Positions 17,902 to 36,584 of a DNA stretch of 37,186 nt are shown here, piece by piece. Below the pieces are notes generated by a model, which saw only the letters and a program-made list of their open reading frames with translations, was not told the origin of the DNA and did not search any database. This DNA comes from Methylocystis sp. (GTDB taxonomy: Bacteria; Pseudomonadota; Alphaproteobacteria; Rhizobiales; Beijerinckiaceae), in contig JACOWC010000008.1 of the NCBI GenBank assembly GCA_016177005.1, positions 1 to 37,186 of the forward strand, written 5' to 3'. Every line of letters begins with the position of its first letter. Within the stretch, counting starts at the first letter, position 1. A program made the position numbers and the translations under genes.

Positions 17902-20041
17902 CTCGGCTCGAAGTCGTCGACAGAGATAATATCGAAGACGGCGGACTCCGCCGTCCGCAAGCGCTCGGCCTCATTTTCGTCGATGACGCCTTGTTGCAGA
18001 CCATCTTCGATCGAGTCGAGCCTTGCTTCGCGTAGCTTTCGGCGCAGTCGCTCCGTTTCGATCGCCAGCTCAAACGTCCGCTCCAGTTGCGCAACGGCAT
18101 CGCCGCCGCAGCCTCTGAAAACATCGGCGGTGAGCCGCTCGCGCGCCTCGCTCGGTCGCGTCAGGATCGCCGCGCAGCGTTGCGCCAGATCGTCCGATGG
18201 TCCAAGTCGCCTCGCGCCGAACGGGAGAATGATGAGTTTCGCCATCCGCGCGATGAATCGGTTTGGCAAATTGGCGAGCGCCCGCCGTTACGCTATAGTC
18301 AACGAGAGGCTCGTCGGACTGGCGCCCACCTTCGTCATGAAACCGTTTGAGCACAGCCGACAGGAAATAGAGCTCGGCCAGAACGTCGCCGAGTCTTGCC
18401 GAGATCATTTCCCTTCGTTTGAGCCGGCCGCCTAGCGTCAGCAAGGCGAGATCGGCGACCAAAGCGAACGACGCGGCATATCGGGACAGCTGCCTATAAT
18501 GATGTGTCATTGCGCCCGCGTTTGGAACCGGGCCGACAAGACCTCCACTCCAGCTTTGCAACCACGCGCGGCCGAGATTGGAAAAGAAATGGCCGACATG
18601 GCGCCAGAGCGCCCGGTCGAACCGTTCGAGCCCTTCATCAGGATCAGCCAGCGCGAGCATTTCCTCGAGAAGATACGGGTGGCTGCGGATCGCCCCCTGT
18701 CCGAAAATGATGAGGCTACGCGTCAACAGATTTGCGCCCTCGACGGTAATGGCGATCGGCGTCACCCGGTGGAGATTGCCGAGATAATTTTTCGGCCCAT
18801 CCATGATGGCCTTGCCGGCGTGAATATCCATCGCGGCGTCTACCGCCTTGCGCATGCGCTCGGTAGCGTGAGCCTTCATGATCGCCGATATGACGGCGGG
18901 CTTGCAGCCATGGTCCAAGGCGGCGCAGGTCAGCCGACGCGCCGCGTCGATTTCATAGGCCGTGGCGGCAAGGTAGCCGAGGCGATCTTGCACGGCTTCC
19001 AACTCGCCGATGGGGACCCCGAACTGTTCCCGAATTCGCGTATAGGCGCCGGTCGAACGGGCGGTGAAAGCCTGAGGGCAACGAGATTCCACGCCCGGCG
19101 GCCAGCGCGCTCATCAGCATCTTCCAGCCGTCGCCGATCCGATCCTTGCCGCCGATGATCCAGTCGAGCGGCGCGAATACGTCGCGCCCGCGATTGGGGC
19201 CGTTCTGGAAGGCCTGAAAAGCCGGGAGGTGCCGTGCGCCGATCTCGACCCCCAGCGTATCGGCCGGCACGAGCGCTACGGTGATGCCGAGATCTTCGTC
19301 GCCGCCGAGCAAACGATCCGGATCATAGACCTTGAACGCGAGACCAAGCACGGTCGCGACAGGACCCAGAGTGATGTAACGTTTATCCCAGTTCAGCTTC
19401 AGACCGAGCACGCGCTCCCCATGCTGCTCGCCGTAACAGACGATCCCTGTGTCGGTCATGGAGGCGGCGTCCGAGCCGGCCTGCGGACTGGTCAGGCAGA
19501 AACATGGGATCTCGCGCCCGTCGGCCAGGCGCGGGAGCCAGCGCGATTTCTGGTCCTCGGTTCCGAACTCGAGCAGCAGTTCGCCCGGTCCGAGCGAGTT
19601 CGGCACCATCACCGTGACAGCGGCTGTGGGACTGCGGCTGGCGATCTTGCGAACCACTTGTGAATGCGCATAGGCGGAAAAGCCCAAGCCGCCATATCTT
19701 TGCGGAATAATCATTCCGAAGAATTTGTTCTGTTTCAGAAAGGCCCAAACTTCGCCTGGCAAGTCGCGCCGTTCCCACTGGACGCTCCATTCGTCCAACA
19801 TCTCGCACAGTTCCTTTACGGGACCGTTCAGGAACGCCTGCTCCGACTCGCTCAAACTTGCCGGCGGCATGGCGAGAAGTTTGCTCCAGTCCGGCGCGCC
19901 GGTGAACAGCTCGGCGTCCCACCAGACATCCCCCGCTTCGATTGCGTCGCGTTCAGTGGCCGACATTTCCGGAAGAGAGCGGCGCGCCCAGCTGAAGATA
20001 GGCGCCGAGACCAGTTTGCTCCTGATCGATACAAGGCTCAA
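17862..20041 (-). pseudogene. fadE: Acyl-CoA dehydrogenase FadE-type, frameshifted
   Basis: Three successive reading frames together encode a FadE-like acyl-CoA dehydrogenase. Frame 1 (from 20041 to about 19090) holds the N-terminal and FAD domains: FGMIIPQRYGGLGFSAYAHS, TVMVPNSLGPGELLL, NWDKRYITLGPVATVLGLAF and GRDVFAPLDWIIGG. Frame 2 (about 19085 to 18275) holds TGAYTRIREQFGVPIGELEA, IHAGKAIMDGPKNYLG and ITVEGANLLTRSLIIFGQGA. Frame 3 (to 17862) holds the C-terminal FadE domain with LPNRFIARMAKLIILPFG and VDDFEPRELS. Short family-conserved stretches are missing at both junctions, so the breaks look like small deletions rather than single sequencing errors. The intact enzyme would start fatty-acid beta-oxidation. 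Confidence 0.85.
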
Positions 20042-24863: not shown

Positions 24864-24879
24864 TGTCATAAACCAAACA
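24864..24879 (+). promoter_or_regulatory. NifA-type upstream activator site 1 of nifA
   Basis: TGTCATAAACCAAACA fits TGT-N10-ACA exactly. It lies just after the TPR stop and 210 bases before the nifA ATG. Confidence 0.6.
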
Positions 24880-24924
24880 AAGCGTCGCGCAAGTGTCACG
24901 CTTCGGCCGTGCCGCCATGGCGCA

Positions 24925-24940
24925 TGTCGAAAAACCAACA
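24925..24940 (+). promoter_or_regulatory. NifA-type upstream activator site 2 of nifA
   Basis: TGTCGAAAAACCAACA fits TGT-N10-ACA exactly and is very similar to site 1, 61 bases upstream (both TGTC, A-rich, CCAA, ACA). Two such close matches in one gap suggest NifA, or a relative, acts here. Confidence 0.6.
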
Positions 24941-25088: not shown

Positions 25089-26867
25089 ATGGACGATGTA
25101 GCGACGTCACGCTCTATGCCCACCGGGGGCTTGGCCGTGAAACCGCCACGGGCGAGAACCCCGTCCGCCGACACGGCGCTGCTCGGCGTCTATGAAATCT
25201 CCAAAATCCTGACTGCGCCGGCCCGCCTCGAGCAGACGCTGGCCAATGTCGTCAGCGTGCTCAGCTCCTTTCTCGACATGAAATTGGGGATGATTACCAT
25301 CCTCGACCAGCACGGCAATCCGGAGATCGTCGCGACCTCGGGGTGGATCAGCCACGATCACAGCAAGCCGATCGACACGCTGCCGACCAAGGTGATCGAC
25401 CGGCTCGTCGCCACCGCCATGCCGGTCATCGTCGAGGATGTGACCCGCGACGCCCTGTTCGCGACGGCGGCCGAGACGATCACCCAGGCGGTCGGCGCGA
25501 GGGTCTCCTTCCTCGCCGTTGCGATCAAGAGCGACAGCCGCGTCGTCGGGACGTTGTCGATCTACCGCACATCGGAAGAGTTCATCGCCTACACCTTCGA
25601 CGCCGATCTGCGCCTCTTGACGATGATCGCCAATCTGATCGGCCAGACGGTGAAGCTGCACCGAATGTTTTCGGCCGACCGGCAGCGCCTGCTGAACGAA
25701 TGCAGCACGTTGGAGAAAGCGCTGGTCTCGTGCATGCCCAAGGAAATCCGTGGCGAGCGGCCCGACGTCGCCGGCATCGTCGGCGAGAGCCCGGCGATCA
25801 TGGAGGTGCTCGACACCATCGCCGTCGTCGCCAAGTCCAATTCGACCGTGCTGCTGCGCGGCGAGAGCGGCACAGGCAAGGAGCTTTTCGCGCGCGCGGT
25901 GCACGACCTGTCGCGCCGCAGCGCCAAGCCCTTCGTTAAGGTGAACTGCGCCGCTCTGCCGGAAAGCGTGCTCGAATCGGAGCTGTTCGGTCATGAGCGC
26001 GGCGCCTTCACCGGCGCCGTCGCGCAGCGCGCGGGCCGCTTCGAACTCGCCAATGGCGGCACGTTGCTGCTCGACGAAATCGGCGAAATATCTCCCGCCT
26101 TCCAGGCGAAGCTGCTGCGCGTGCTGCAGGAAGGCGAATTCGAGCGGGTTGGCGGCGCCAAGACCTTGAAGGTCAACATCCGATTCGTTTTCGCGACCAA
26201 CAAAAACCTCGAAGCGGCCGTCGACAAGGGCGAGTTCCGCGCCGACCTCTATTACCGCATCAGCGTCGTGCCCGTGTTCCTGCCGCCGCTGCGCGAGCGG
26301 CCCGGCGACGTTTCGCTGCTGGCGCGCAATTTCATCGAGCGTTTCAACAGTGAAAACGATCAAAAGCACGAGCTCTCGGCGAGCGCCATAGAGACGCTGC
26401 AACGCTGCTACTTCCCCGGCAACGTGCGCGAACTGGAAAATTGCGTGCGCCGCACGGCGACGTTGGCGCGCGCCGAAACCATCGTCGATCACGATTTCGC
26501 CTGCGCCTCCGGCAAATGCCTCTCAGCCTTGCTGTGGACCGGAAGCGCCAGCGGCGCCTTTTCGCGAGCCTATCCCGAACCGGCCAAAATGCGCGCCGCG
26601 CCGCCCGAGGATATCGCGCCGGGGCGGCGCGCCGAAACCGCGCCGGTTGCGACCTTCTTCGATGAGCCGCCGCCGCTTGCCGCCGCCGGCGAAGGGGACG
26701 GTCTCGGCTTGGCGTCGTCCCGCAAGATGATCGATCGGGAGAGCCTCATCGAAGGCATGGAGAAAGCCGCCTGGGTGCAGGCGAAAGCGGCGCGGCTTCT
26801 TGGCCTGTCGCTCCGCCAGGTCAATTACGCGCTGAAAAAATATAACATTGAAATAAAGCGCATCTGA
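25089..26867 (+). CDS. nifA: Nitrogen-fixation transcriptional activator NifA
   Basis: The protein has 592 residues; AAGGAAGG lies before the ATG. Domain order: GAF (about 40-190), AAA+ sigma-54 activator (about 228-465) with Walker A GESGTGKE at 258-265, GAFTGA at 305-310 (sigma-54 contact) and LLLDE at 326-330, then a linker and a Fis-type helix-turn-helix (about 549-592). Four cysteines at 440, 452, 472 and 477 have the exact C-x11-C-x19-C-x4-C spacing of the oxygen-sensitive NifA of rhizobia and relatives, thought to hold a metal or cluster. It activates sigma-54 promoters from TGT-N10-ACA sites, which occur before nifA itself, nifB and nifH here. Confidence 0.96.
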   Translation: MDDVATSRSMPTGGLAVKPPRARTPSADTALLGVYEISKILTAPARLEQTLANVVSVLSSFLDMKLGMITILDQHGNPEIVATSGWISHDHSKPIDTLPTKVIDRLVATAMPVIVEDVTRDALFATAAETITQAVGARVSFLAVAIKSDSRVVGTLSIYRTSEEFIAYTFDADLRLLTMIANLIGQTVKLHRMFSADRQRLLNECSTLEKALVSCMPKEIRGERPDVAGIVGESPAIMEVLDTIAVVAKSNSTVLLRGESGTGKELFARAVHDLSRRSAKPFVKVNCAALPESVLESELFGHERGAFTGAVAQRAGRFELANGGTLLLDEIGEISPAFQAKLLRVLQEGEFERVGGAKTLKVNIRFVFATNKNLEAAVDKGEFRADLYYRISVVPVFLPPLRERPGDVSLLARNFIERFNSENDQKHELSASAIETLQRCYFPGNVRELENCVRRTATLARAETIVDHDFACASGKCLSALLWTGSASGAFSRAYPEPAKMRAAPPEDIAPGRRAETAPVATFFDEPPPLAAAGEGDGLGLASSRKMIDRESLIEGMEKAAWVQAKAARLLGLSLRQVNYALKKYNIEIKRI

Positions 26868-27078
26868 GCCCATCCGGCGATTGTCGCATTTAGGATATTT
26901 GTCCAAATTCGCGGGGGCCGAGCGGACTGCATCGGTTCACACAAGCGGGTTGAACAGGCGTTCCTGAAGGCGCGCGGACCAAAACGGTCCTTGGACCGCG
27001 AGCCTCAGGGAACGCATCCGATTCCTGCTTTCAATTCCGCCAGTTGCAATTGGCGTTGGACATCGCCGGGTTTGCGAC

Positions 27079-27093
27079 TGGCATGGGATTTGA
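27079..27093 (+). promoter_or_regulatory. Candidate sigma-54 promoter of the fdxN-LRV-suf operon
   Basis: TGGCATGGGATTTGA has the -24 element exactly as in the nifB and nifH promoters (TGGCATGG) and a -12 element at the right spacing, but the -12 reads TTGA instead of TTGC. No full TGT-N10-ACA site is visible upstream (only TGT...ATA at about 26882). Transcription would start about 30 bases before fdxN. Confidence 0.4.
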
Positions 27094-27134
27094 AAGGAGC
27101 AGAAACCCACAATTGAATGGATGGAAATCGCGAC

Positions 27135-27329
27135 ATGGCCTACAAAATTATAGCCTCCCAATGTACGGTTTGCGGCGCGTGCGAATTCGAATGTCCGAAT
27201 GCGGCGATCCGCCTCAAGAACGACATGTACATCATCGACCCGAAGAAATGCACCGAGTGCGAAGGGCATTTCGACAAGCCGCAATGTGCGGTCGTCTGCC
27301 CCGTCGAAAACACTTGCGTGCCGGCGTAG
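27135..27329 (+). CDS. fdxN: 2[4Fe-4S] ferredoxin, FdxN type, copy 1
   Basis: The protein has 64 residues, starting at ATG 27135 to give the usual MAYKI N-terminus. Cluster motifs: Cys10, 13, 16 and 20 ([12 protein letters not shown]) and Cys39, 42, 51 and 55 (C-x2-C-x8-C-x3-CP), with an extra Cys61. The widened second motif is typical of nif-linked FdxN ferredoxins, which in Azotobacter supply NifB with electrons for NifB-co. It heads the operon that continues with the LRV protein and sufBCD. It is closely related to copy 2 at 33837-34061. Confidence 0.9.
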
Positions 27330-27364
27330 CGCTGAAAGCGTGGCCTGGCGGGACGACGCATCGC

Positions 27365-28102
27365 ATGGACGCCGTCGACTGGCTCGGAAACTTCCTGTCC
27401 TGCCGCGATTGTCCGCATGTGGAGATTCGCGAGAAAGGCCTTTGCGATCTCGGACAGATTTGCGTGCGCGATCGAAGGGCCCGCCGCATAGACAGGTTCT
27501 TCGCCGCGTGTCCGCAAGAATCCGCAAAATATCTCGATCATCCCTATTTCGAGCTGCGCGTCGGCGCGGTGAAATATGCGAGCGTGTTTCAACTGCGCGC
27601 GCTGATCGATGATGAGGAGCCGGACGTCAGAGCCATGGTGGCGCAGCGTCTGCCGTTGCGTCTGGCTGAAAGGTTGATCGACGACCGCGACCGCAAAGTG
27701 CGCATGGCGATGGCCCAGCGTGTCGAGGGCGCGGGCCTCGTGAAGCTGCTCTTCGATGAAGACAGCGGCGTGCGCCTGATTGCAGCGCGTCGCGCGCCGC
27801 CCGAGATTCTCGCAGGCGCGACCAAGGATGACGACCCGCAGGTGCGATGCGAAGCGGCGCGGCGGATCGCCCTCGACAAGCTCCCGGCCATGGCGCGCGA
27901 TCCCGAAGCGCGCGTGCGCATGATTATTGCAGAGCGGTTGGAGCCGGCGCAATTGGGGCTGCTCATCGCCGACGAAGATTTGCGGGTCCGCTTCCTGGTG
28001 GCGGAGCGATGTGGAGCGGAATTGCTGGCGCGTCTGCGCGACGATCCTGATCCGGAAGTGAGGCGCCTCGCCCAGGCGCGACTGGACGAAGCGCAACAGT
28101 AA
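27365..28102 (+). CDS. 4Fe4S-binding leucine-rich-variant (LRV) repeat protein, copy 1
   Basis: The protein has 245 residues from ATG 27365, 35 bases after fdxN. The N-terminal four cysteines (13, 16, 27, 33; C-x2-C-x10-C-x5-C) match the 4Fe-4S domain of the Azotobacter vinelandii LRV protein. The rest is about eight helical repeats of about 24 residues, with DxxxxVRxxxAxR cores (DDEEPDVRAMVAQRLP, DDRDRKVRMAMAQR, DEDSGVRLIAARRA). Such proteins occur by nifB in diazotrophs; their job is unproven, probably docking or sensing. The stop is 12 bases before sufB. It is a paralogue of the gene at 34946-35704. Confidence 0.88.
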   Translation: MDAVDWLGNFLSCRDCPHVEIREKGLCDLGQICVRDRRARRIDRFFAACPQESAKYLDHPYFELRVGAVKYASVFQLRALIDDEEPDVRAMVAQRLPLRLAERLIDDRDRKVRMAMAQRVEGAGLVKLLFDEDSGVRLIAARRAPPEILAGATKDDDPQVRCEAARRIALDKLPAMARDPEARVRMIIAERLEPAQLGLLIADEDLRVRFLVAERCGAELLARLRDDPDPEVRRLAQARLDEAQQ

Positions 28103-28114
28103 ACGGAGAGCGAA

Positions 28115-29602
<1,488 letters not shown>

Positions 29603-29628
29603 CGCCTCAATGAATTGGGAGTGATGGA

Positions 29629-30387
29629 ATGACGGCGCTACTGGAAATTCGCAACCTTAAGGCCGAGATCGCCGGCAAGCAGATTCTCAACGGCTATGAT
29701 CTCACCGTGAAGGCGGGCGAGGTCCATGCGATCATGGGGCCGAACGGCTCGGGCAAATCGACGCTCTCCTATGTGCTCTCTGGCCGGCCCGGCTATACAA
29801 TTACTGAAGGGCAGGCGCTGCTCGCCGGCGCCGATCTGTCGCAGATGAGCGTCGACGAACGCGCCGCGGCGGGGCTGTTCCTCGCCTTTCAATATCCGCT
29901 GGAGGTGCCGGGCGTCGCCACGATGACCTTTCTGCGCGCCGCGGTGAACGCGCAGCGCAAGAAGCGCGGCGAGGAGGAAATGTCGTCGCCCGATCTGATC
30001 AAGAGCGTCAAGGAGATCGCCAAAATCCTCGACATGGACATGGAGATGCTGCGGCGTCCGGTGAACGTCGGCTTCTCCGGCGGCGAGAAGAAGCGCGCCG
30101 AGACGCTGCAGATGATGCTGCTCCAACCCAAGCTGTGCATCCTGGACGAGACCGACTCGGGGCTCGACATCGACGCGCTGAAGGTCGTCTCCAATGGCGT
30201 CAATCAATTGCGCTCGAAGGACCGGGGCATCGTCGTCATCACCCATTATCAGCGCCTGCTCGATTACATCACGCCGGACGTCGTCCATGTGCAGTCGGCC
30301 GGCCGCATCGTGCGGACCGGCGGGAAGGAGCTTGCCCTGGAGCTTGAAGAAACCGGGTACGCCAGCTACCAGAGCGAAGCGGCTTAA
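29629..30387 (+). CDS. sufC: Fe-S cluster assembly ATPase SufC
   Basis: The protein has 252 residues. Walker A is GPNGSGKST (37-45), the signature is FSGGEKKR (149-156), Walker B is LCILDETDSG (169-178), and the H-loop His is 206. The ETDSGLD segment is characteristic of SufC. It is the ATPase of the SufBC2D complex, driving shape change for iron entry and cluster assembly. It starts 26 bases after sufB and ends 3 bases before sufD. Confidence 0.96.
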   Translation: MTALLEIRNLKAEIAGKQILNGYDLTVKAGEVHAIMGPNGSGKSTLSYVLSGRPGYTITEGQALLAGADLSQMSVDERAAAGLFLAFQYPLEVPGVATMTFLRAAVNAQRKKRGEEEMSSPDLIKSVKEIAKILDMDMEMLRRPVNVGFSGGEKKRAETLQMMLLQPKLCILDETDSGLDIDALKVVSNGVNQLRSKDRGIVVITHYQRLLDYITPDVVHVQSAGRIVRTGGKELALELEETGYASYQSEAA

Positions 30388-30390
30388 GTC

Positions 30391-31719
30391 ATGAGCAACG
30401 CACCCGCCACACCCTCGCGCAAACTCACCGACGCCGAGACTCGGCTGGCGGAGATCTTCGCCACGCAACAGAGCGCCGGCGCGCCGCAACTTGCGACGTT
30501 GCGCACCGCCGCCTTTGACGCCTTTTCCAAGACGGGCCTGCCCAACCGACATGACGAAGCATGGAAATACACGGATTTGCGCGCGCTGCTGCGCGACGTG
30601 AAGCCCCTGGCCGCGCCGCCGGAAGAAAGCGCGGCGCAAAGCATGCGCGATGCGGCGGTTCTTACGGGCGTCGCTGCGCGGCGCATCGTCTTCGTCGGCG
30701 GCTATTTCGTTCCGACGCTGTCCGATCTCGGCGATCTGGAAAAAGGGCTGAGCGTGATGTCGCTGTCCGAGGCCTTGGCCAAGGGCGACGCCGCGACGAC
30801 CGCCCTACTTGGGAAAGTGGGCAAGGTCGACGATCCGGCCTTCGCGCTCAATACGGCCTTTATGGGCGAAGGCGTCGTCATCCGCATCGGCGCCGGCCGA
30901 TGCGTTGAACGACCGATACAATTGGTTTTCGTCGCGGGCGAACAGCCGGCGACCTATTTTCTGCGCTCGCTCATCGTCGTCGAAAAAGGCGCGCGAGCGA
31001 CCCTGATCGAGAGCTTCGAGGGCGCCACGACGCAGGAATATCACGTAAACGCCGCAACAGAGGTCGTGCTGGAAGAAGGCGCGACGCTTGAGCGGCTCAA
31101 AATCAGCCGCGAAGGCGGCGCCGCGATGCACGTCTCGACCTTCGTCGCCTCGCTCGCCGCCAACGCCCGGCTGAGCGACTTCGGGCTCAATCTCGGCGGC
31201 GCCTTGTTGCGCAACCAATCCTTCGTCAGTCTGAACGGGCAGGGCGCCCATGCCGGCGTGCGCGGCGCCAACATATTGAAGAACAAGGAACACGCCGACG
31301 CGACCTTGTTCCTCGATCATGCGGCGGAACGTTCGGAAAGCAAGGCGCTGTTCAAATCCGTTCTGGAGGATTCGTCGCAGGCGGTGTTTCAGGGGAAGAT
31401 CCTGGTGCGGCCCGGCGCGCAAAAGACCGATGCGCGCATGATGGCCCGCGCGCTGTTGCTGTCCGAGGGCGCGCAGGCCAATTGCAAACCGGAGCTGGAA
31501 ATCTTCGCCGACGACGTGCAGTGCGCCCATGGTTCGACCGTCGGCGCGCTCGACGAGAACTTGGTGTTCTATCTGATGGCGCGCGGAATTGGCCGGATCG
31601 AAGCCGAAGCGCTGCTGACGGAAGCTTTCATTGGTGAAGCGATCGACGCCGTCGAGAATCGCAGCGTTCGAGAGGCTCTCGCCGCGCTCGTTGCCGAGCG
31701 ACTGAGAGCGCGAAAATGA
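30391..31719 (+). CDS. sufD: Fe-S cluster assembly scaffold subunit SufD
   Basis: The protein has 442 residues, a normal length. The N-terminal helices carry GLPNRHDEAWKYTDLRAL, the SufD hallmark. The beta-helix core ends with QANCKPELEIFADDVQCAHG, where the His corresponds to the E. coli SufD residue at the cluster-building interface, followed by STVGALDENLVFYLMARGI. All features of a working subunit are present. It is 3 bases from sufC and is followed by a sufS remnant instead of an intact sufS. Confidence 0.95.
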   Translation: MSNAPATPSRKLTDAETRLAEIFATQQSAGAPQLATLRTAAFDAFSKTGLPNRHDEAWKYTDLRALLRDVKPLAAPPEESAAQSMRDAAVLTGVAARRIVFVGGYFVPTLSDLGDLEKGLSVMSLSEALAKGDAATTALLGKVGKVDDPAFALNTAFMGEGVVIRIGAGRCVERPIQLVFVAGEQPATYFLRSLIVVEKGARATLIESFEGATTQEYHVNAATEVVLEEGATLERLKISREGGAAMHVSTFVASLAANARLSDFGLNLGGALLRNQSFVSLNGQGAHAGVRGANILKNKEHADATLFLDHAAERSESKALFKSVLEDSSQAVFQGKILVRPGAQKTDARMMARALLLSEGAQANCKPELEIFADDVQCAHGSTVGALDENLVFYLMARGIGRIEAEALLTEAFIGEAIDAVENRSVREALAALVAERLRARK

Positions 31720-31746
31720 TCTGACAGCCGGTGAGCGACAGGTCAT

Positions 31747-32064
31747 ATGACGTTGCGCGGCGGCGTCGTGACGTCACAATTCTGGACGTTAGGATTCATG
31801 CTCTGCCGCTCGTCTATCTCGACAATGCGGCGTCAGCGCAAAAGCCTCAGGCGGTTCTCTATCGCATTTAGCGCGCTATGCCGGCGAATATGCGAAGGCG
31901 ATCGTTCGGGAATCGCCATCGGCGTGGGGACTCGCTGCGCCAGCCCATTGCTGAATCGCTTTGGCGCCGCCGCCTGCCGGGCGTCGTTCCCACCGCACAA
32001 CACGAGCGAAGAAGCGGACCTGTTCATTCAGTCGACAGGGAAAGCGCGTCAGATGCTGGTCTGA
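31747..32064 (+). pseudogene. sufS: Remnant of cysteine desulfurase SufS (large internal deletion)
   Basis: Two pieces of SufS remain. The first (in the frame of 31785) reads LPLVYLDNAASAQKPQAVL, the SufS N-terminal hallmark, and hits TAG at 31869. Traces such as ARYAGEYAKA follow in another frame. The second (frame of 31747, ending TGA 32062) reads GIAIGVGTRCASPLLNRFG, ACRASFPPHNTSEEAD and so on, the C-terminal end with the active-site Cys. The PLP-Lys region and more than 300 residues between are gone. SufS supplies sulfur to SufBCD, so this operon has lost its own donor. It begins 27 bases after sufD, the usual place for sufS. Confidence 0.8.
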
Positions 32065-32104: not shown

Positions 32105-32120
32105 TGTTAAATTTGTTACA
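32105..32120 (+). promoter_or_regulatory. NifA upstream activator site 1 of nifB
   Basis: TGTTAAATTTGTTACA is an exact TGT-N10-ACA match, 98 bases before the -24 element. Confidence 0.72.
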
Positions 32121-32146
32121 GGGAACCCGCGCGCGATGTAAGGACG

Positions 32147-32162
32147 TGTTTGCATATTGACA
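32147..32162 (+). promoter_or_regulatory. NifA upstream activator site 2 of nifB
   Basis: TGTTTGCATATTGACA is an exact TGT-N10-ACA match, 42 bases (four helical turns) after site 1 and 56 bases before the -24 element. Confidence 0.75.
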
Positions 32163-32217: not shown

Positions 32218-32232
32218 TGGCATGGTTGTTGC
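32218..32232 (+). promoter_or_regulatory. Sigma-54 promoter of nifB
   Basis: TGGCATGGTTGTTGC has GG and GC at the correct -24/-12 spacing and the full TTGC. The transcript should start near 32244, leaving a leader of about 70 bases before nifB. Confidence 0.85.
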
Positions 32233-32316
32233 GACCCTTCCGCCAAATTCACGCAACGCTCCGTCTTAGCCGAGAGTCGGCATTGACGACTTTGCAGCGA
32301 CAAAAGGATGCATGCC

Positions 32317-33801
32317 ATGACGTCTCTGGATGTTGGAACGGCGAATGCAGTTGAAGGGGTGAACGCAGCAGTCGCGATGGACGACGTGATGCAGAAGCTC
32401 GCCGAGCACAAGGGCTGCGGCACGTCGGGCGGCAGCGGCAAGGCGAGCTGCGGTTCGGGCGCCGGGCAGGGCGACCTGCCGACTGAGATTTGGGAGAAAG
32501 TCAAGAACCACCCCTGCTACAGCGAAGAGGCGCATCATCATTATGCGCGCATGCACGTCGCCGTCGCGCCGGCTTGCAACATCCAGTGCAACTATTGCAA
32601 CCGCAAATATGATTGCGCCAACGAGTCGCGTCCCGGCGTCGTCAGCGAGAAGCTGACTCCCGAGCAGGCCGCCAAGAAGGTCTTGGCCGTCGCCTCCACC
32701 ATTCCGCAAATGACGGTTCTGGGCATCGCCGGCCCGGGCGATCCGCTCGCCAATCCGGAAAAAACCTTCAAGACATTCGATCTGATCTCGCGCACCGTTA
32801 CGATCACCATCAACATGGTCGATCCGGAAATCGGCGCGAAGATCTATCCTTGGGTGTTCTGGAAGCATAAGCGCTACACCGGCGTCGAAGCGGCGAAGCT
32901 GCTCACCGACCGGCAGCTGCAGGGCCTGGAAATGCTCACCGAGCGCGGCATTCTGTGCAAGGTGAATTCGGTGATGATCCCCGGCATTAACGACAAGCAT
33001 CTCGTCGACGTGAACAAGGCCGTCAAATCCCGCGGCGCGTTCCTGCACAATATCATGCCGCTGATCTCGGCGCCGGAGCACGGCACGGTGTTCGGCCTCA
33101 ACGGCCAGCGCGGTCCGTCGGCGCAAGAGCTGAAGGCGCTGCAGGACAGCTGCGAAGGCGAGATGAACATGATGCGCCATTGCCGCCAGTGCCGCGCCGA
33201 CGCGGTCGGCCTGCTCGGCGAGGATCGCAGCGCTGAGTTTACCACCGAAAAAATCATGGCGATGGAGGTCGACTACGACCTCGAGTCCCGCAAGGCCTAT
33301 CAAGAGAAGGTCGAAGAAGAGCGCGTCGCGAAGGTTGCCGCGAAGCAGGAAGAGCTGGCGACGCTGGCCGGCGCGGCGAGCGACATCAAGTTGCTGATCG
33401 CGGTGGCGACCAAGGGTTCGGGCCTCATCAACGAACATTTCGGTCACGCCAAAGAGTTCCAGGTCTACGAGCTCTCCACCTCGGGCGCGAAATTCGTCGG
33501 ACATCGCCGCGTCGATCTCTACTGCCAGGGCGGTTATGGCGACGAAGACAGTCTGGAGACGGTTATTCGCGCCATCAACGACTGCCATGCGGTGTTCGTC
33601 GCTAAGATTGGCGGTTGCCCGAAGAACGACCTCATCAAGGCCGGGATCGAGCCCGTCGATCAATTCGCGCATGAGTTCATCGAGAAGTCGGCGATCGCTT
33701 GGTTCAAGGCCTATCTCGACAAGGTGAACAGCGGCGAGATCGAACATCAGGAGCGCGGCGACGCCGAAATCCGTCAGGGCGCGCTCATCAACGCAGCCTG
33801 A
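32317..33801 (+). CDS. nifB: Nitrogenase cofactor biosynthesis radical SAM protein NifB
   Basis: The protein has 494 residues from the ATG at 32317, which lies 9 bases after AAAAGG; an in-frame ATG at 32308 has no room for a ribosome site. The radical SAM cluster motif is Cys87-x3-Cys91-x2-Cys94 ([14 protein letters not shown]). The C-terminal part from about residue 365 is a NifX/NafY-type domain with [20 protein letters not shown], giving the two-domain form of NifB. NifB fuses two [4Fe-4S] units and inserts carbide to make NifB-co, the core of FeMo-co. It is expressed from a NifA/sigma-54 promoter and leads the operon fdxN2-iscA-like-TPR2-LRV2. Confidence 0.97.
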
Positions 33802-34072: not shown

Positions 34073-34411
34073 ATGAAATTTACGCTTACGCCGGCTGCAC
34101 AAAAATTCGTCCGGCGAATGATTCAGTTCAGCGCTAATCCGGGCGGAGGCTTTCGCTTATTGGTGTCGCCGGGAGGGTGCTCGGGGCTCAGCGCGGTGTT
34201 CGACGTCGAAGCCGCGCCGCGCGCCGGCGATCAGGAATTCGTCGTCGAAGGCGTCAAGTTCTTCCTTCCGGCCGAAAGCCGCCTGCTGCTTGATGGCGTA
34301 ACGATCGATTTCGCCGATTCCTCTTCAAGCGGGGGGCTCGTCTTTCACGATCCGAAGAACACTGGATCGTGCAAGAGCGCCAGCGCGCCTATCGTGGAGC
34401 ATACGCATTAA
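34073..34411 (+). CDS. IscA/HesB-like A-type carrier protein, nif-linked
   Basis: The protein has 112 residues from ATG 34073, behind AGGAGG. The A-type fold is recognisable: FRLLVSPGGCSGLSA with Cys36, and LLLDGVTIDFADSSSSGGLV before the C-terminal Cys. Classic IscA has Cys35, Cys99 and Cys101; here Cys36 and Cys100 keep the 63-residue spacing, but the CGC pair reads CKS, so the third ligand is missing. A-type proteins carry [2Fe-2S] or [4Fe-4S] clusters or iron to targets. Its place between fdxN and the TPR gene in the nifB operon points to a nitrogenase-specific role. Confidence 0.83.
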   Translation: MKFTLTPAAQKFVRRMIQFSANPGGGFRLLVSPGGCSGLSAVFDVEAAPRAGDQEFVVEGVKFFLPAESRLLLDGVTIDFADSSSSGGLVFHDPKNTGSCKSASAPIVEHTH

Positions 34412-34422
34412 AGGCGCGGGTA

Positions 34423-34956
34423 ATGGCGAATGGCGAGCAAGCCGCTCTGAGCCCCGACGAGAAAGAACTTCTCGCCGGGGCGCTTCTTGGCGAGGGCCTG
34501 CCGCCGGAGGCGGAAGAATTTCTCCATCTGGCCAGCGAAGCCTACGCCGACTCTGAAACGGCGGAGCGCTATTTGCGCCAGGCACAGCAATGGGCCCCAG
34601 ATCACGCCGCCGTGCTGATCGGCTTTTATCGCTTTTACTTTTACAAGGGCAGATTGCGAGAGGCGTTGGAGATCGCCAATCGCTGTCTCGAAAAAGCCAC
34701 GCGCGAAAACAACCTGCCGCGGGATTGGCGACGCGCCTCGGCGCAGGACGCGGTTTTCGATCGCTACGACGAAATGCTGCCGCGCTTCTTCCTCTTTACT
34801 TTGAAGGGCTACGCCTATTTGCAGATGCGCCTCGGCGCGCTCGAGGAAAGCCGGGTCGCAATCGCCAAGCTTCTTGAACTCGATCCGACCGACAAGATTG
34901 GCGCTAAGGTTCTTCTCGGCGTTCTCGACAGAATCGGCTTGGAAGATGACGCGTGA
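34423..34956 (+). CDS. nif-associated TPR protein, copy 2
   Basis: The protein has 177 residues from ATG 34423, 11 bases after the IscA-like stop. Helical pairs are visible: AERYLRQAQQWAPDHAAVLI, FYKGRLREALEIANRCLEKA, and FFLFTLKGYAYLQMRLGALE, ending KIGAKVLLGVLDRIG. It aligns with the TPR protein before nifA across these parts. The N-terminal 45 residues (PDEKELLAGALLGEGLPPEA) are extra. It overlaps the LRV gene by 11 bases, so the two proteins are translated together and may interact. Confidence 0.8.
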   Translation: MANGEQAALSPDEKELLAGALLGEGLPPEAEEFLHLASEAYADSETAERYLRQAQQWAPDHAAVLIGFYRFYFYKGRLREALEIANRCLEKATRENNLPRDWRRASAQDAVFDRYDEMLPRFFLFTLKGYAYLQMRLGALEESRVAIAKLLELDPTDKIGAKVLLGVLDRIGLEDDA

Positions 34957-35704
34957 GATCGACGAAGCGCGCGACTGGCGCGGGTTGGAAATCGATTGTG
35001 CGAACTGCGCGCATCGAGAGCTGCTGGTCGCGGGACGATGCGAATTGCGCAAAGCCTGCGTGCACGACCGTTATGCGCGGCGTATCGATCGTTTCTTCAA
35101 TTGGAATCCCGAACTCGCCGACGGCTATCTTGCGCATCCACATTTCGAAGTGCGCGCGATAGCGGCGAAATTCGCCAATCCTTTTCTCCTGCCGCGCTTA
35201 TTGTCGGATCCCGACGAAACCGTGCGCTGGGAGGCCGTGCGGCGGCTGCCTGCGCGATATCAATGCGAATTGCGCAATGACCCGCATCGCGAAGTGCGCA
35301 TTCGCGTCGCCACGCTGCTCGACGATCCGGATCTTCTGCCGATGATGCAGGACGAGGATTATTACGTGCGGATCGTGATCGCGCGTAAGGTCGCTCCGGC
35401 GTTGCTGGTGATGATGATCGACGATGCGGAAGTCGAGGTGCGACGCATTGTCGCGCAACGCATCGACGCGCAGTGGCTGGGACGGATGTGTCGAGATTCG
35501 AACGCCGAGGTGCGTCTTGACGCTGCGCGAAGGATGACTCCGGAACAATTGTTGGATTTGAAAGAAGATGACGATTGGCGCGTGCGCCATTACGTCGCCA
35601 CGAGATTGAATGTGGAAGAAATCGGACATTTGATCAACGACAGCGATCCGCTCGTCGCGGAGGCGGCCCGCGAGCGGCTCGCGGACGAGGCGTCGAAGCG
35701 CTGA
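34946..35704 (+). CDS. 4Fe4S-binding leucine-rich-variant (LRV) repeat protein, copy 2
   Basis: The protein has 252 residues from ATG 34946, overlapping the TPR stop by 11 bases. Cys18, 21, 32 and 38 repeat the C-x2-C-x10-C-x5-C pattern of copy 1 exactly. About eight LRV helical repeats follow (LSDPDETVRWEAVRRLP, DDPDLLPMMQDEDYYVRIVI, DDAEVEVRRIVAQR, KEDDDWRVRHYVATRL). It matches the LRV protein known from the Azotobacter nif region. As the last gene of the nifB operon it should be made under nitrogen-fixing conditions. Confidence 0.88.
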   Translation: MTREIDEARDWRGLEIDCANCAHRELLVAGRCELRKACVHDRYARRIDRFFNWNPELADGYLAHPHFEVRAIAAKFANPFLLPRLLSDPDETVRWEAVRRLPARYQCELRNDPHREVRIRVATLLDDPDLLPMMQDEDYYVRIVIARKVAPALLVMMIDDAEVEVRRIVAQRIDAQWLGRMCRDSNAEVRLDAARRMTPEQLLDLKEDDDWRVRHYVATRLNVEEIGHLINDSDPLVAEAARERLADEASKR

Positions 35705-35747: not shown

Positions 35748-36584
35748 TCAACCCGCGGCTCGATCCACGACGAACTCCAGGGACGCGTCGCCAGCAGTCA
35801 GGGTCGTCCCGGCGGCCAGGGCGTCGGCGAGCCTGTCCAGCCGGATCAAGGCGAGGCCCCTGTCGCCGCTGTGTGATCCCGCCACGCCGATTTCGATCTC
35901 GCCCGCCATTACTTTTGTTCCGGGCGCCGGCGCCTCGCCGTCCACGTGGTAAGGCGTTATGCGCTTGCGCGCGAGGTTGCGATGCTTGGTGCGCGAGACG
36001 ACTTCCTGGCCGACATAGCATCCCTTGGTGAAATCGACGCCGGCGAGCAGGTCCATGTTCGCTTCGTGCGGGAATGCGGCGCCATAGGCGAAATCGACCC
36101 CGCCTTGCGGAACCCCGGCGGCGATGCGCGCCGCTTCATAGTCTTCGCGAGCGTCTTCCGCCTTTGTGCCGCGCGGCGCGATCAGTCGCCAGCCCAGCGT
36201 CTCGGCGCGCGGATCGCGCGCCATCGCCAGCGCGGGAATGTCCGGTTTCGACTCGCCGAGAACGCAGAAGACGGCGAGTTCGTCGCTTTTCGACGTGAGC
36301 GTCACCGCGGCGCGCAATTTGTACTTGCCGAGGCGGCCAAGGAGGTCCGGCTCCAATTCGCGCGGGCAATCGAGCAAATAGCGGCGCTTCTCGCCCTCGC
36401 CGTCCGCGAAGACGAGGAAATCGGCCAATATCTTCCCTTGCGGGGCCAGCAGCGCGCAATAGCGTGCTTCGCCCGGGACGAGTTTGGCGATGTCGTTGGT
36501 GACCAGATTATGCAGGAAACTGGTTGCGTCTGCCCCGGCGATTTCGATAACGCCGCGATCCCCCAGGCTGATGACTGCTGACAT
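35748..36584 (-). CDS. ygfZ: YgfZ/GcvT-like folate-binding protein
   Basis: The protein has 278 residues. The family hallmark KGCYVGQE is present in DFTKGCYVGQEVVSRTKHR, and the N-terminus has the GcvT-like IEIAGADATSFLHNLVTNDI. YgfZ (IBA57 in mitochondria) uses tetrahydrofolate and helps some 4Fe-4S enzymes, such as the tRNA methylthiolase MiaB, keep their clusters. It lies between two nif operons on the opposite strand. It could be an ordinary house-keeping gene that marks an island boundary, or it could serve Fe-S work there. Confidence 0.9.
   Translation of the reverse strand: MSAVISLGDRGVIEIAGADATSFLHNLVTNDIAKLVPGEARYCALLAPQGKILADFLVFADGEGEKRRYLLDCPRELEPDLLGRLGKYKLRAAVTLTSKSDELAVFCVLGESKPDIPALAMARDPRAETLGWRLIAPRGTKAEDAREDYEAARIAAGVPQGGVDFAYGAAFPHEANMDLLAGVDFTKGCYVGQEVVSRTKHRNLARKRITPYHVDGEAPAPGTKVMAGEIEIGVAGSHSGDRGLALIRLDRLADALAAGTTLTAGDASLEFVVDRAAG

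What the first reader, a model, noticed from the sequence alone, without database searches (positions are those of the whole stretch)
27079..32064. sufBCD embedded in a nif operon behind a ferredoxin and an LRV protein
sufB, sufC and sufD follow fdxN and an LRV gene with gaps of 35, 12, 26 and 3 bases, between nifA and nifB. House-keeping suf operons of Alphaproteobacteria normally carry sufS, a regulator and sufT/sufA-type genes, none of which is intact here. This looks like a dedicated SUF scaffold for nitrogenase, used where NifU/NifS usually work. The LRV protein with its own 4Fe-4S site may be a client or docking factor of that scaffold.
Basis: partly seen in the sequence, partly recalled or inferred. 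Interest (0 to 1): 0.75.

Follow-up and report, generated by a model that had tools for sequence, protein, structure and literature searches.

The report
Nitrogenase-dedicated SufBCD scaffold replacing NifU
In a group of methane-eating bacteria the nitrogen-fixation gene cluster carries its own extra iron-sulfur cluster builder (SufBCD), found where the usual builder NifU has lost its scaffold part, so it probably makes the clusters that nitrogenase needs.

Summary
The block occurs in 14 of 37 same-genus genomes and in 3 Methyloceanibacter-type genomes. In Methylocystis, NifU scaffold and second SUF exclude each other: 11 genomes NifU and one SUF, 19 no NifU scaffold and two SUFs, 7 neither. 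That is only about three independent switches, and Methyloceanibacter has both. In 10 NifU-less nif clusters read at the iscA-nifU-nifS site, NifU is cut down to its Nfu domain while NifS stays. sufB and sufC stay constrained although sufS was lost at least twice. A sigma-54-like element at 27079 is one of three in the window; the others precede nifB and nifH. Best reading: NifS feeds a NifA-controlled SufBCD scaffold, which passes clusters to Nfu/HesB-type carriers. Precedents: Paenibacillus (functional), Bradyrhizobium (nif-linked). Across the order most NifU-less diazotrophs have one SUF only. No bench test exists for this locus.

The parts
25089..26867 (+). nifA
   Evidence: TIGR01817, 717.6 bits, cut-off 528.85
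26882..26897 (+). degenerate NifA upstream site (TGT-N10-ATA; TGT-N10-ACA at the aligned place in 12 of 14 relatives incl. window count)
   Evidence: sequence
27079..27094 (+). sigma-54-type -24/-12-like element TGGCAT-N5-TTGAA (the -12 half lacks the usual GC)
   Evidence: TGGCAT-N5-TTGA in 14 of 14; one of 3 TGGCAY-N5-TTG sites in the window, 0.34 expected
27135..27329 (+). 2[4Fe-4S] ferredoxin (fdxN-like)
   Evidence: Fer4 families; start conserved in 14 of 14
27365..28102 (+). LRV_FeS protein
   Evidence: PF05484 and PF01816; nearest solved structure 1lrv, E 1.9e-33; four Cys conserved in 7 of 7 aligned
28115..29602 (+). sufB (C253, C405, E434 correspond to E. coli C254, C405, E434)
   Evidence: TIGR01980; alignment to 5awf; residues named in the abstract of PMC5571166
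29629..30387 (+). sufC ATPase
   Evidence: TIGR01978; 2zu0
30391..31719 (+). sufD (H380 corresponds to E. coli H360)
   Evidence: TIGR01981; alignment to the SufD chains
31743..32064 (+). sufS remnant (N- and C-terminal pieces, middle deleted, frame broken)
32105..32162 (+). two TGT-N10-ACA sites before nifB (32105-32120, 32147-32162)
   Evidence: conserved in 14 of 14
32218..32233 (+). nifB -24/-12 element TGGCATGGTTGTTGCG: nifB has its own promoter
32308..33801 (+). nifB
   Evidence: TIGR01290
33837..35704 (+). ferredoxin, HesB/IscA-like A-type carrier (34073-34411), TPR protein, second LRV_FeS protein; candidate carriers downstream
   Evidence: conserved order

Best explanation
The block is a NifA/sigma-54-controlled unit that supplies nitrogenase with Fe-S clusters on a SufBCD scaffold instead of on NifU. 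Shown by sequence: intact SufB, SufC and SufD with the residues needed for sulfur acceptance and cluster formation; a separate second suf set in the genome; loss of the sufS of this block; and, in relatives, loss of the NifU scaffold domain with its Nfu domain and NifS kept in the nif cluster. Inferred: NifS (in the relatives; its region is missing from this incomplete MAG) gives sulfur to SufB, SufBC2D builds the cluster with ATP, and Nfu plus the HesB/IscA-type carriers pass it to NifH, NifDK and NifB. The block's own SufS then became dispensable and decayed.
For: Second suf set on C72/C96 with SufS, SufT-like and SufA; the same order is contiguous in relatives. No NifU_N match in the own genome. 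Genus: 11 of 37 genomes have full NifU and one SufD, 19 have no NifU scaffold and two SufDs, 7 neither. The 7 have no nifH over the cut-off and no NifS over the cut-off. At the iscA-nifU-nifS site, 10 of 11 loci fetched from NifU-less Methylocystis have IscA-Nfu-NifS with NifU cut to residues about 256-330 (the 11th, G035 C75, was not the nif site), against full NifU in 6 of 6 NifU+ loci; the Nfu frames are open in 10 of 10. dN/dS of the nif-linked copies: sufB 0.017-0.032, sufC 0.013-0.052, sufD 0.11-0.24 in 6 pairs. sufS lost at least twice: G000 groups with G035, whose sufS is intact (100/99), and 10 others form a separate clade (100/100). Promoter. Precedents: PMC8038749 (abstract and discussion) and PMC3404531 Table 4.
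Against: The genus pattern is about 3 independent switches (3 of 3 pairs go the same way, sign test p 0.25). Across the order, 41 of 63 further diazotrophs lack NifU_N but only 2 of these (G280, G399) have a nif-linked second SUF, so a dedicated SUF is not needed for N2 fixation without NifU. Methyloceanibacter-type genomes have the cassette and a full NifU. The -12 half of the 27079 element lacks GC and the window's own upstream site is one base off. The window's own MAG shows neither NifS nor the nifS region. No expression or mutant data exist for this locus.
Confidence: 0.7

Rival explanations
1. The nif-linked SUF serves only some nif-cluster clients (for example NifB, the ferredoxins or the LRV proteins), while the housekeeping SUF and Nfu serve nitrogenase itself.
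For: Most NifU-less diazotrophs in the order have one SUF only (38 of 41 by hit number; G225 has an extra weak hit), and some of these also have IscA-Nfu-NifS (G233, G064, G120), so housekeeping SUF can evidently support nitrogenase. The block sits next to nifB.
Against: Does not explain why NifU scaffold and second SUF exclude each other within Methylocystis.
Confidence: 0.14
2. It is a general second SUF for oxygen or iron stress that happens to lie among nif genes.
For: SUF is the stress system in E. coli (established knowledge). The conserved -24/-12-like element is imperfect.
Against: No suf regulator and no sufA/sufT in the block; it lies in a conserved nif context in 14 of 14 genomes and is missing from NifU+ relatives, which have one SufD.
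Confidence: 0.1
3. After losing sufS the block is a decaying relic.
For: sufS is broken or gone in 11 of 14 Methylocystis cassettes, and disturbed in 2 of 3 Methyloceanibacter-type ones.
Against: sufB and sufC dN/dS 0.013-0.052 including pairs of sufS-less genomes; full-length frames; catalytic residues kept.
Confidence: 0.03
4. It is the only SUF of the organism (house-keeping set).
For: None.
Against: Two further SufB/SufD-bearing contigs with SufS in the same genome.
Confidence: 0.02

Closest known systems
Paenibacillus polymyxa WLY78 nitrogenase Fe-S assembly (NifS-like + SufCDB + Nfu-type YutI), PMC8038749
   Same: SufBCD as scaffold, a NifS-type desulfurase as sulfur donor and a stand-alone Nfu as carrier; no NifU scaffold. 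There sufC, sufD and sufB mutants lose nitrogenase activity (abstract and discussion).
   Different: There it is the housekeeping sufCDSUB operon, outside the nif cluster; its partial second set (sufB2C2D2) was not needed. Here a second SufBCD sits inside the nif cluster.
nif-cluster sufBCDX of photosynthetic Bradyrhizobium, PMC11973431
   Same: suf genes co-located with nif, called potentially involved in nitrogen fixation (one passage seen).
   Different: No function tested there; whether NifU/Nfu status was examined was not seen. The only long-branched nif-linked SUF in our set (G280, unnamed) is outside the Methylocystis clade.
NIF system (NifU/NifS) of Azotobacter and Klebsiella
   Same: nif-encoded, nitrogenase-dedicated, NifS kept in relatives.
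   Different: The NifU scaffold and [2Fe-2S] domains are gone; only the Nfu domain remains.
Methylacidiphilum fumariolicum SolV transcriptome, PMC3404531
   Same: In N2-fixing cells sufB (1099 to 2409 RPKM), sufD (663 to 2169), nifS1 (93 to 801), the nif-region sufA1 (40 to 2301) and the LRV FeS4 gene (88 to 1884) rise while nifU falls (54 to 16) (section read).
   Different: A verrucomicrobium; by locus tag its sufBD are not in the nif region.

Membership tests
SUF scaffold SufBC2D | SufB, SufC and SufD all present and above curated cut-offs | tested here: met
SUF scaffold SufBC2D | SufB Cys254 (sulfur acceptor), Cys405, Glu434 and SufD His360 (cluster site) | tested here: met
   alignments; residues from the abstract of PMC5571166
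SUF scaffold SufBC2D | assembles and transfers a cluster with ATP | not testable with these tools
   no assay
complete SUF operon | own cysteine desulfurase SufS | tested here: not met
   remnant only; intact in G018, G026, G035 and G110
NIF system (NifU/NifS) | NifU with NifU_N scaffold domain | tested here: not met
   no match in the own genome (65% complete) and none of nif type in the 13 other cassette genomes
NIF system (NifU/NifS) | nif-linked NifS | tested here: inconclusive
   absent from the own incomplete MAG; above cut-off in 11 of 14 cassette genomes, split in one more; next to Nfu in the nif loci read
Paenibacillus-type SufCDB/NifS/Nfu route | SufBCD required for nitrogenase activity | not testable with these tools
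   needs a mutant
Paenibacillus-type SufCDB/NifS/Nfu route | stand-alone Nfu carrier | tested here: met
   in relatives only: open frame with CxxC in 10 of 10, PF01106 for the one scanned; the region is missing in the own MAG
NifA/sigma-54 regulon | TGT-N10-ACA and -24/-12 element upstream | tested here: inconclusive
   element at 27079 in 14 of 14 but without GC at -12; upstream site exact in 12 of 14, not in the window

The most novel reading that the evidence does not exclude
A modular hybrid Nif-Suf machine: the scaffold half of NifU has been swapped for a nif-recruited SufBCD, while NifS (input) and Nfu/HesB (output) of the NIF pathway are kept and the SUF input module SufS is discarded. 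It has been assembled more than once: the nif clade shared by Methylocystis, Methyloceanibacter and G399, a second recruitment in G012/G027/G032/G036, an identical copy of the housekeeping set about 18 kb from nifH in G007, and G280. Living genomes show the stages: SUF plus NifU, SUF with SufS and no NifU scaffold, SUF without SufS.
Probability: 0.5. Interest if true: 0.75.

Novelty: new variant of a known kind. Interest (0 to 1): 0.6.

Why it matters
How alphaproteobacterial diazotrophs without NifU build nitrogenase clusters is not settled in the papers seen here. This genus holds close relatives that use NifU and others that carry a nif-linked SufBCD, and a series of sufS losses, so it gives natural replacements to test whether SufBCD fed by NifS is a sufficient scaffold for nitrogenase. 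That matters for engineering nitrogenase into hosts that already have SUF, such as plastids (the last point is general knowledge, not from a call).

Tried and rejected
LRV as a SUF partner: rejected as specific, since 39 of 50 named LRV loci show no sufB/sufD in the stretch fetched. NifE with a C-terminal BFD-type [2Fe-2S] domain as a displaced piece of NifU: rejected, because the tail is also present in the 10 of 10 NifU+ Methylocystis NifE proteins read. A general rule 'no NifU, therefore a second SUF': rejected for the order; only 2 of 41 NifU-less diazotrophs outside the genus have a nif-linked second SUF. Strict exclusion of NifU and nif-linked SUF: rejected outside Methylocystis, because G110, G227 and G319 have both (full NifU read in G110 only). 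Nfu-only at nifS as a mark of a dedicated SUF: not specific; in 9 single-SUF NifU-less genomes read around nifH, nifS was seen in 4, and 3 of these have IscA-Nfu-NifS. The ~150-aa NifU_N-like protein (weak hits near 1e-7 in both groups) is not nif-type and was left aside. Statistical strength of the genus pattern: 3 independent pairs, p 0.25.

Paper searches that gave nothing on a nif-linked suf in Methylocystis or Methyloceanibacter: (open-licence PMC only). Two Bradyrhizobium papers were searched for suf and nifU without a hit; passages of two Methylocystis papers held nothing on suf or nifU (the 'suf' hits in the latter are the name suflitae).
Full report
Observation. Between nifA (25089-26867) and nifB (32308-33801) the window carries a ferredoxin gene, an LRV_FeS gene, sufB, sufC and sufD with gaps of 35, 12, 26 and 3 bases, as described. 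Behind sufD lies a sufS remnant: pieces matching residues 10-64 and 360-412 of an intact SufS in different frames, the middle gone.

Who it is. Named relatives of the LRV gene at 92-96% identity are mostly Methylocystis (M. rosea, M. silviterrae, M. suflitae and unnamed strains) or MAGs of Methylocystaceae and higher ranks, and the cassette genomes are in the window's own genus code. The window's assembly is a MAG of 2.06 Mb, 65% complete. Its nif contig ends just inside nifH.

Second suf set. The genome has another SufB on contig C72 (with an IscS-like desulfurase) and the end of a SufB with SufC, SufD, SufS (414 aa), a SufT-like protein and SufA on C96. That C72 and C96 adjoin is inferred; in relatives the order IscS-SufB-SufC-SufD-SufS-SufT-SufA is contiguous.

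Conservation. The whole order from nifA to LRV2 is found in 14 Methylocystis genomes, the window included (in G029 the contig ends within LRV2), and in three genomes of another genus (G110, G227, G319). A SufC+SufD tree puts these 17 and G399 (another family, also with a nif-linked set) in one clade, 100/99, apart from the Methylocystis housekeeping sets, which form a 20-row group with the later recruitments (100/99). So the cassette is not a recent copy of the host's own suf operon. G026 has this cassette but its housekeeping SUF groups with a NifU+ species (100/97), which points to transfer of nif clusters within the genus (inference).

NifU and SUF in the genus. In 37 same-genus genomes, SufD is found twice in 19 and NifU_N of nif type (E below 1e-40) in 11; no genome has both. 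The 7 with neither have no nifH and no NifS above the cut-offs. The 11 NifU+ genomes all have nifH above the cut-off; of the 19, 9 do and others show fragments at contig ends, while G029 and G035 show no nifH but carry the nifA-nifB cassette. Of the 19, 14 carry the window's type. G012, G027, G032 and G036 carry a different second set, near the genus's own SUF (98/93); it lies on a contig with a nifB fragment in G012, with fixC-, fixB-, fixA-like genes, cysE and nifV in G036, with the like by eye in G027; in G032 the contig is too short to show nif genes. G007 has a copy whose SufC and SufD are identical to its housekeeping ones, about 18 kb from nifH. On a tree of housekeeping suf proteins this makes 3 independent switches, all 3 in the expected direction, sign test p 0.25: suggestive, not significant.

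What is left of NifU. At the iscA-nifU-nifS site, full NifU is present in 6 of 6 NifU+ loci read (5 Methylocystis, 1 Methyloceanibacter-type), whereas in 10 of 11 loci fetched from NifU-less Methylocystis only the Nfu part remains between IscA and NifS (the 11th, from G035, was not the nif site). It is an open frame with CxxC in 10 of 10, and PF01106 for the one scanned. G399 and G280 show the same. Thus the scaffold and [2Fe-2S] domains of NifU are what is missing, while the carrier domain and NifS are kept.

Loss of sufS. sufS of the cassette is an open frame of 412 aa in G018, G026 and G035; in 10 genomes only 402-415 bp lie between sufD and nifB and little or no sufS is recognisable (best E 5.8e-4 in G014, E 0.003-3.6 in the other 9); the window keeps both ends. 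Because the window groups with G035 (100/99) and the 10 form another clade (100/100), at least two losses are needed. In Methyloceanibacter-type genomes it is intact in G110, in two frames in G227 and altered at its end in G319. The rest of the cassette is not decaying: dN/dS is 0.017-0.032 for sufB and 0.013-0.052 for sufC, 0.11-0.24 for sufD (6 pairs). The sulfur-accepting and cluster-site residues of SufB and SufD are present.

Control. TGGCAY-N5-TTG occurs three times in the window, 0.34 expected, 0 of 100 shuffles as many: at 27079 (before fdx), 32218 (before nifB) and 36959 (before nifH). The pattern was written after seeing the first two, so the count is partly post hoc. TGT-N10-ACA occurs six times, 1.67 expected, 0 of 100 shuffles as many; two lie before nifB and one before nifH. 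Upstream of fdx the -24/-12-like element is in 14 of 14 genomes and the upstream site in 12 of 14, the window being one of the two exceptions, with one base off. The -12 half lacks the canonical GC, a point against.

Wider view. Of 397 genomes drawn from the order, 64 have nifH at E <= 1e-100. Of the 63 outside the genus, 22 have NifU_N. Of the 41 without, 38 show one SUF by hit number, G225 one plus a weak extra hit, and only G280 and G399 a nif-linked second one. Of the 22 with NifU, 19 show one SUF and 3 two. So NifU-less diazotrophs as a rule seem to manage with one SUF, and a dedicated one is an elaboration.

Function. The most economical reading is that SufBCD took over as nitrogenase scaffold and that this lineage gave it its own nif-controlled copy. 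NifS, still there, makes SufS redundant; Nfu and the HesB/IscA-type proteins deliver. Paenibacillus gives a genetic precedent for exactly this set of parts (PMC8038749, abstract and discussion read). In the methanotroph SolV, N2-fixing cells raise sufB, sufD, nifS1, the nif-region sufA1 and the LRV gene but lower nifU (PMC3404531, section read). A nif-linked sufBCDX is mentioned for photosynthetic Bradyrhizobium (PMC11973431, one passage). The claim that this block serves nitrogenase remains untested at the bench.

The LRV protein. It is a relative of 1lrv (E 1.9e-33) and keeps four cysteines in the 7 sequences aligned. In 39 of 50 named loci it occurs without sufB or sufD in the fetched stretch, mostly beside fdx and nif genes. 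It is a general nif gene, and nothing here ties it to SUF beyond position.

Noticed in passing
L093:4065-5729 (G024) and relatives: NifE of these methanotrophs carries a C-terminal BFD-type [2Fe-2S] domain (PF04324), in NifU+ and NifU-less Methylocystis alike, not in G046 or G280.
   Followed up: partly
window 35751-36584 (-): A CAF17/YgfZ-like gene, a family linked to Fe-S enzymes (recalled), stands next to the second LRV gene.
   Followed up: no
window 34967-35704 and 34073-34956: A second LRV_FeS gene behind nifB, with a HesB-like and a TPR gene; this second block is common in other nif clusters.
   Followed up: partly
L150 and L083 (G007): G007 has two suf sets with identical SufC and SufD proteins, one about 18 kb from nifH.
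   Followed up: partly
window 18070-20041 (-): An acyl-CoA dehydrogenase-like reading frame appears split in two overlapping ORFs (by eye), perhaps a frameshift.
   Followed up: no
window 24864-24940: Two TGT-N10-ACA sites upstream of nifA, as if nifA were under NifA control too.
   Followed up: no
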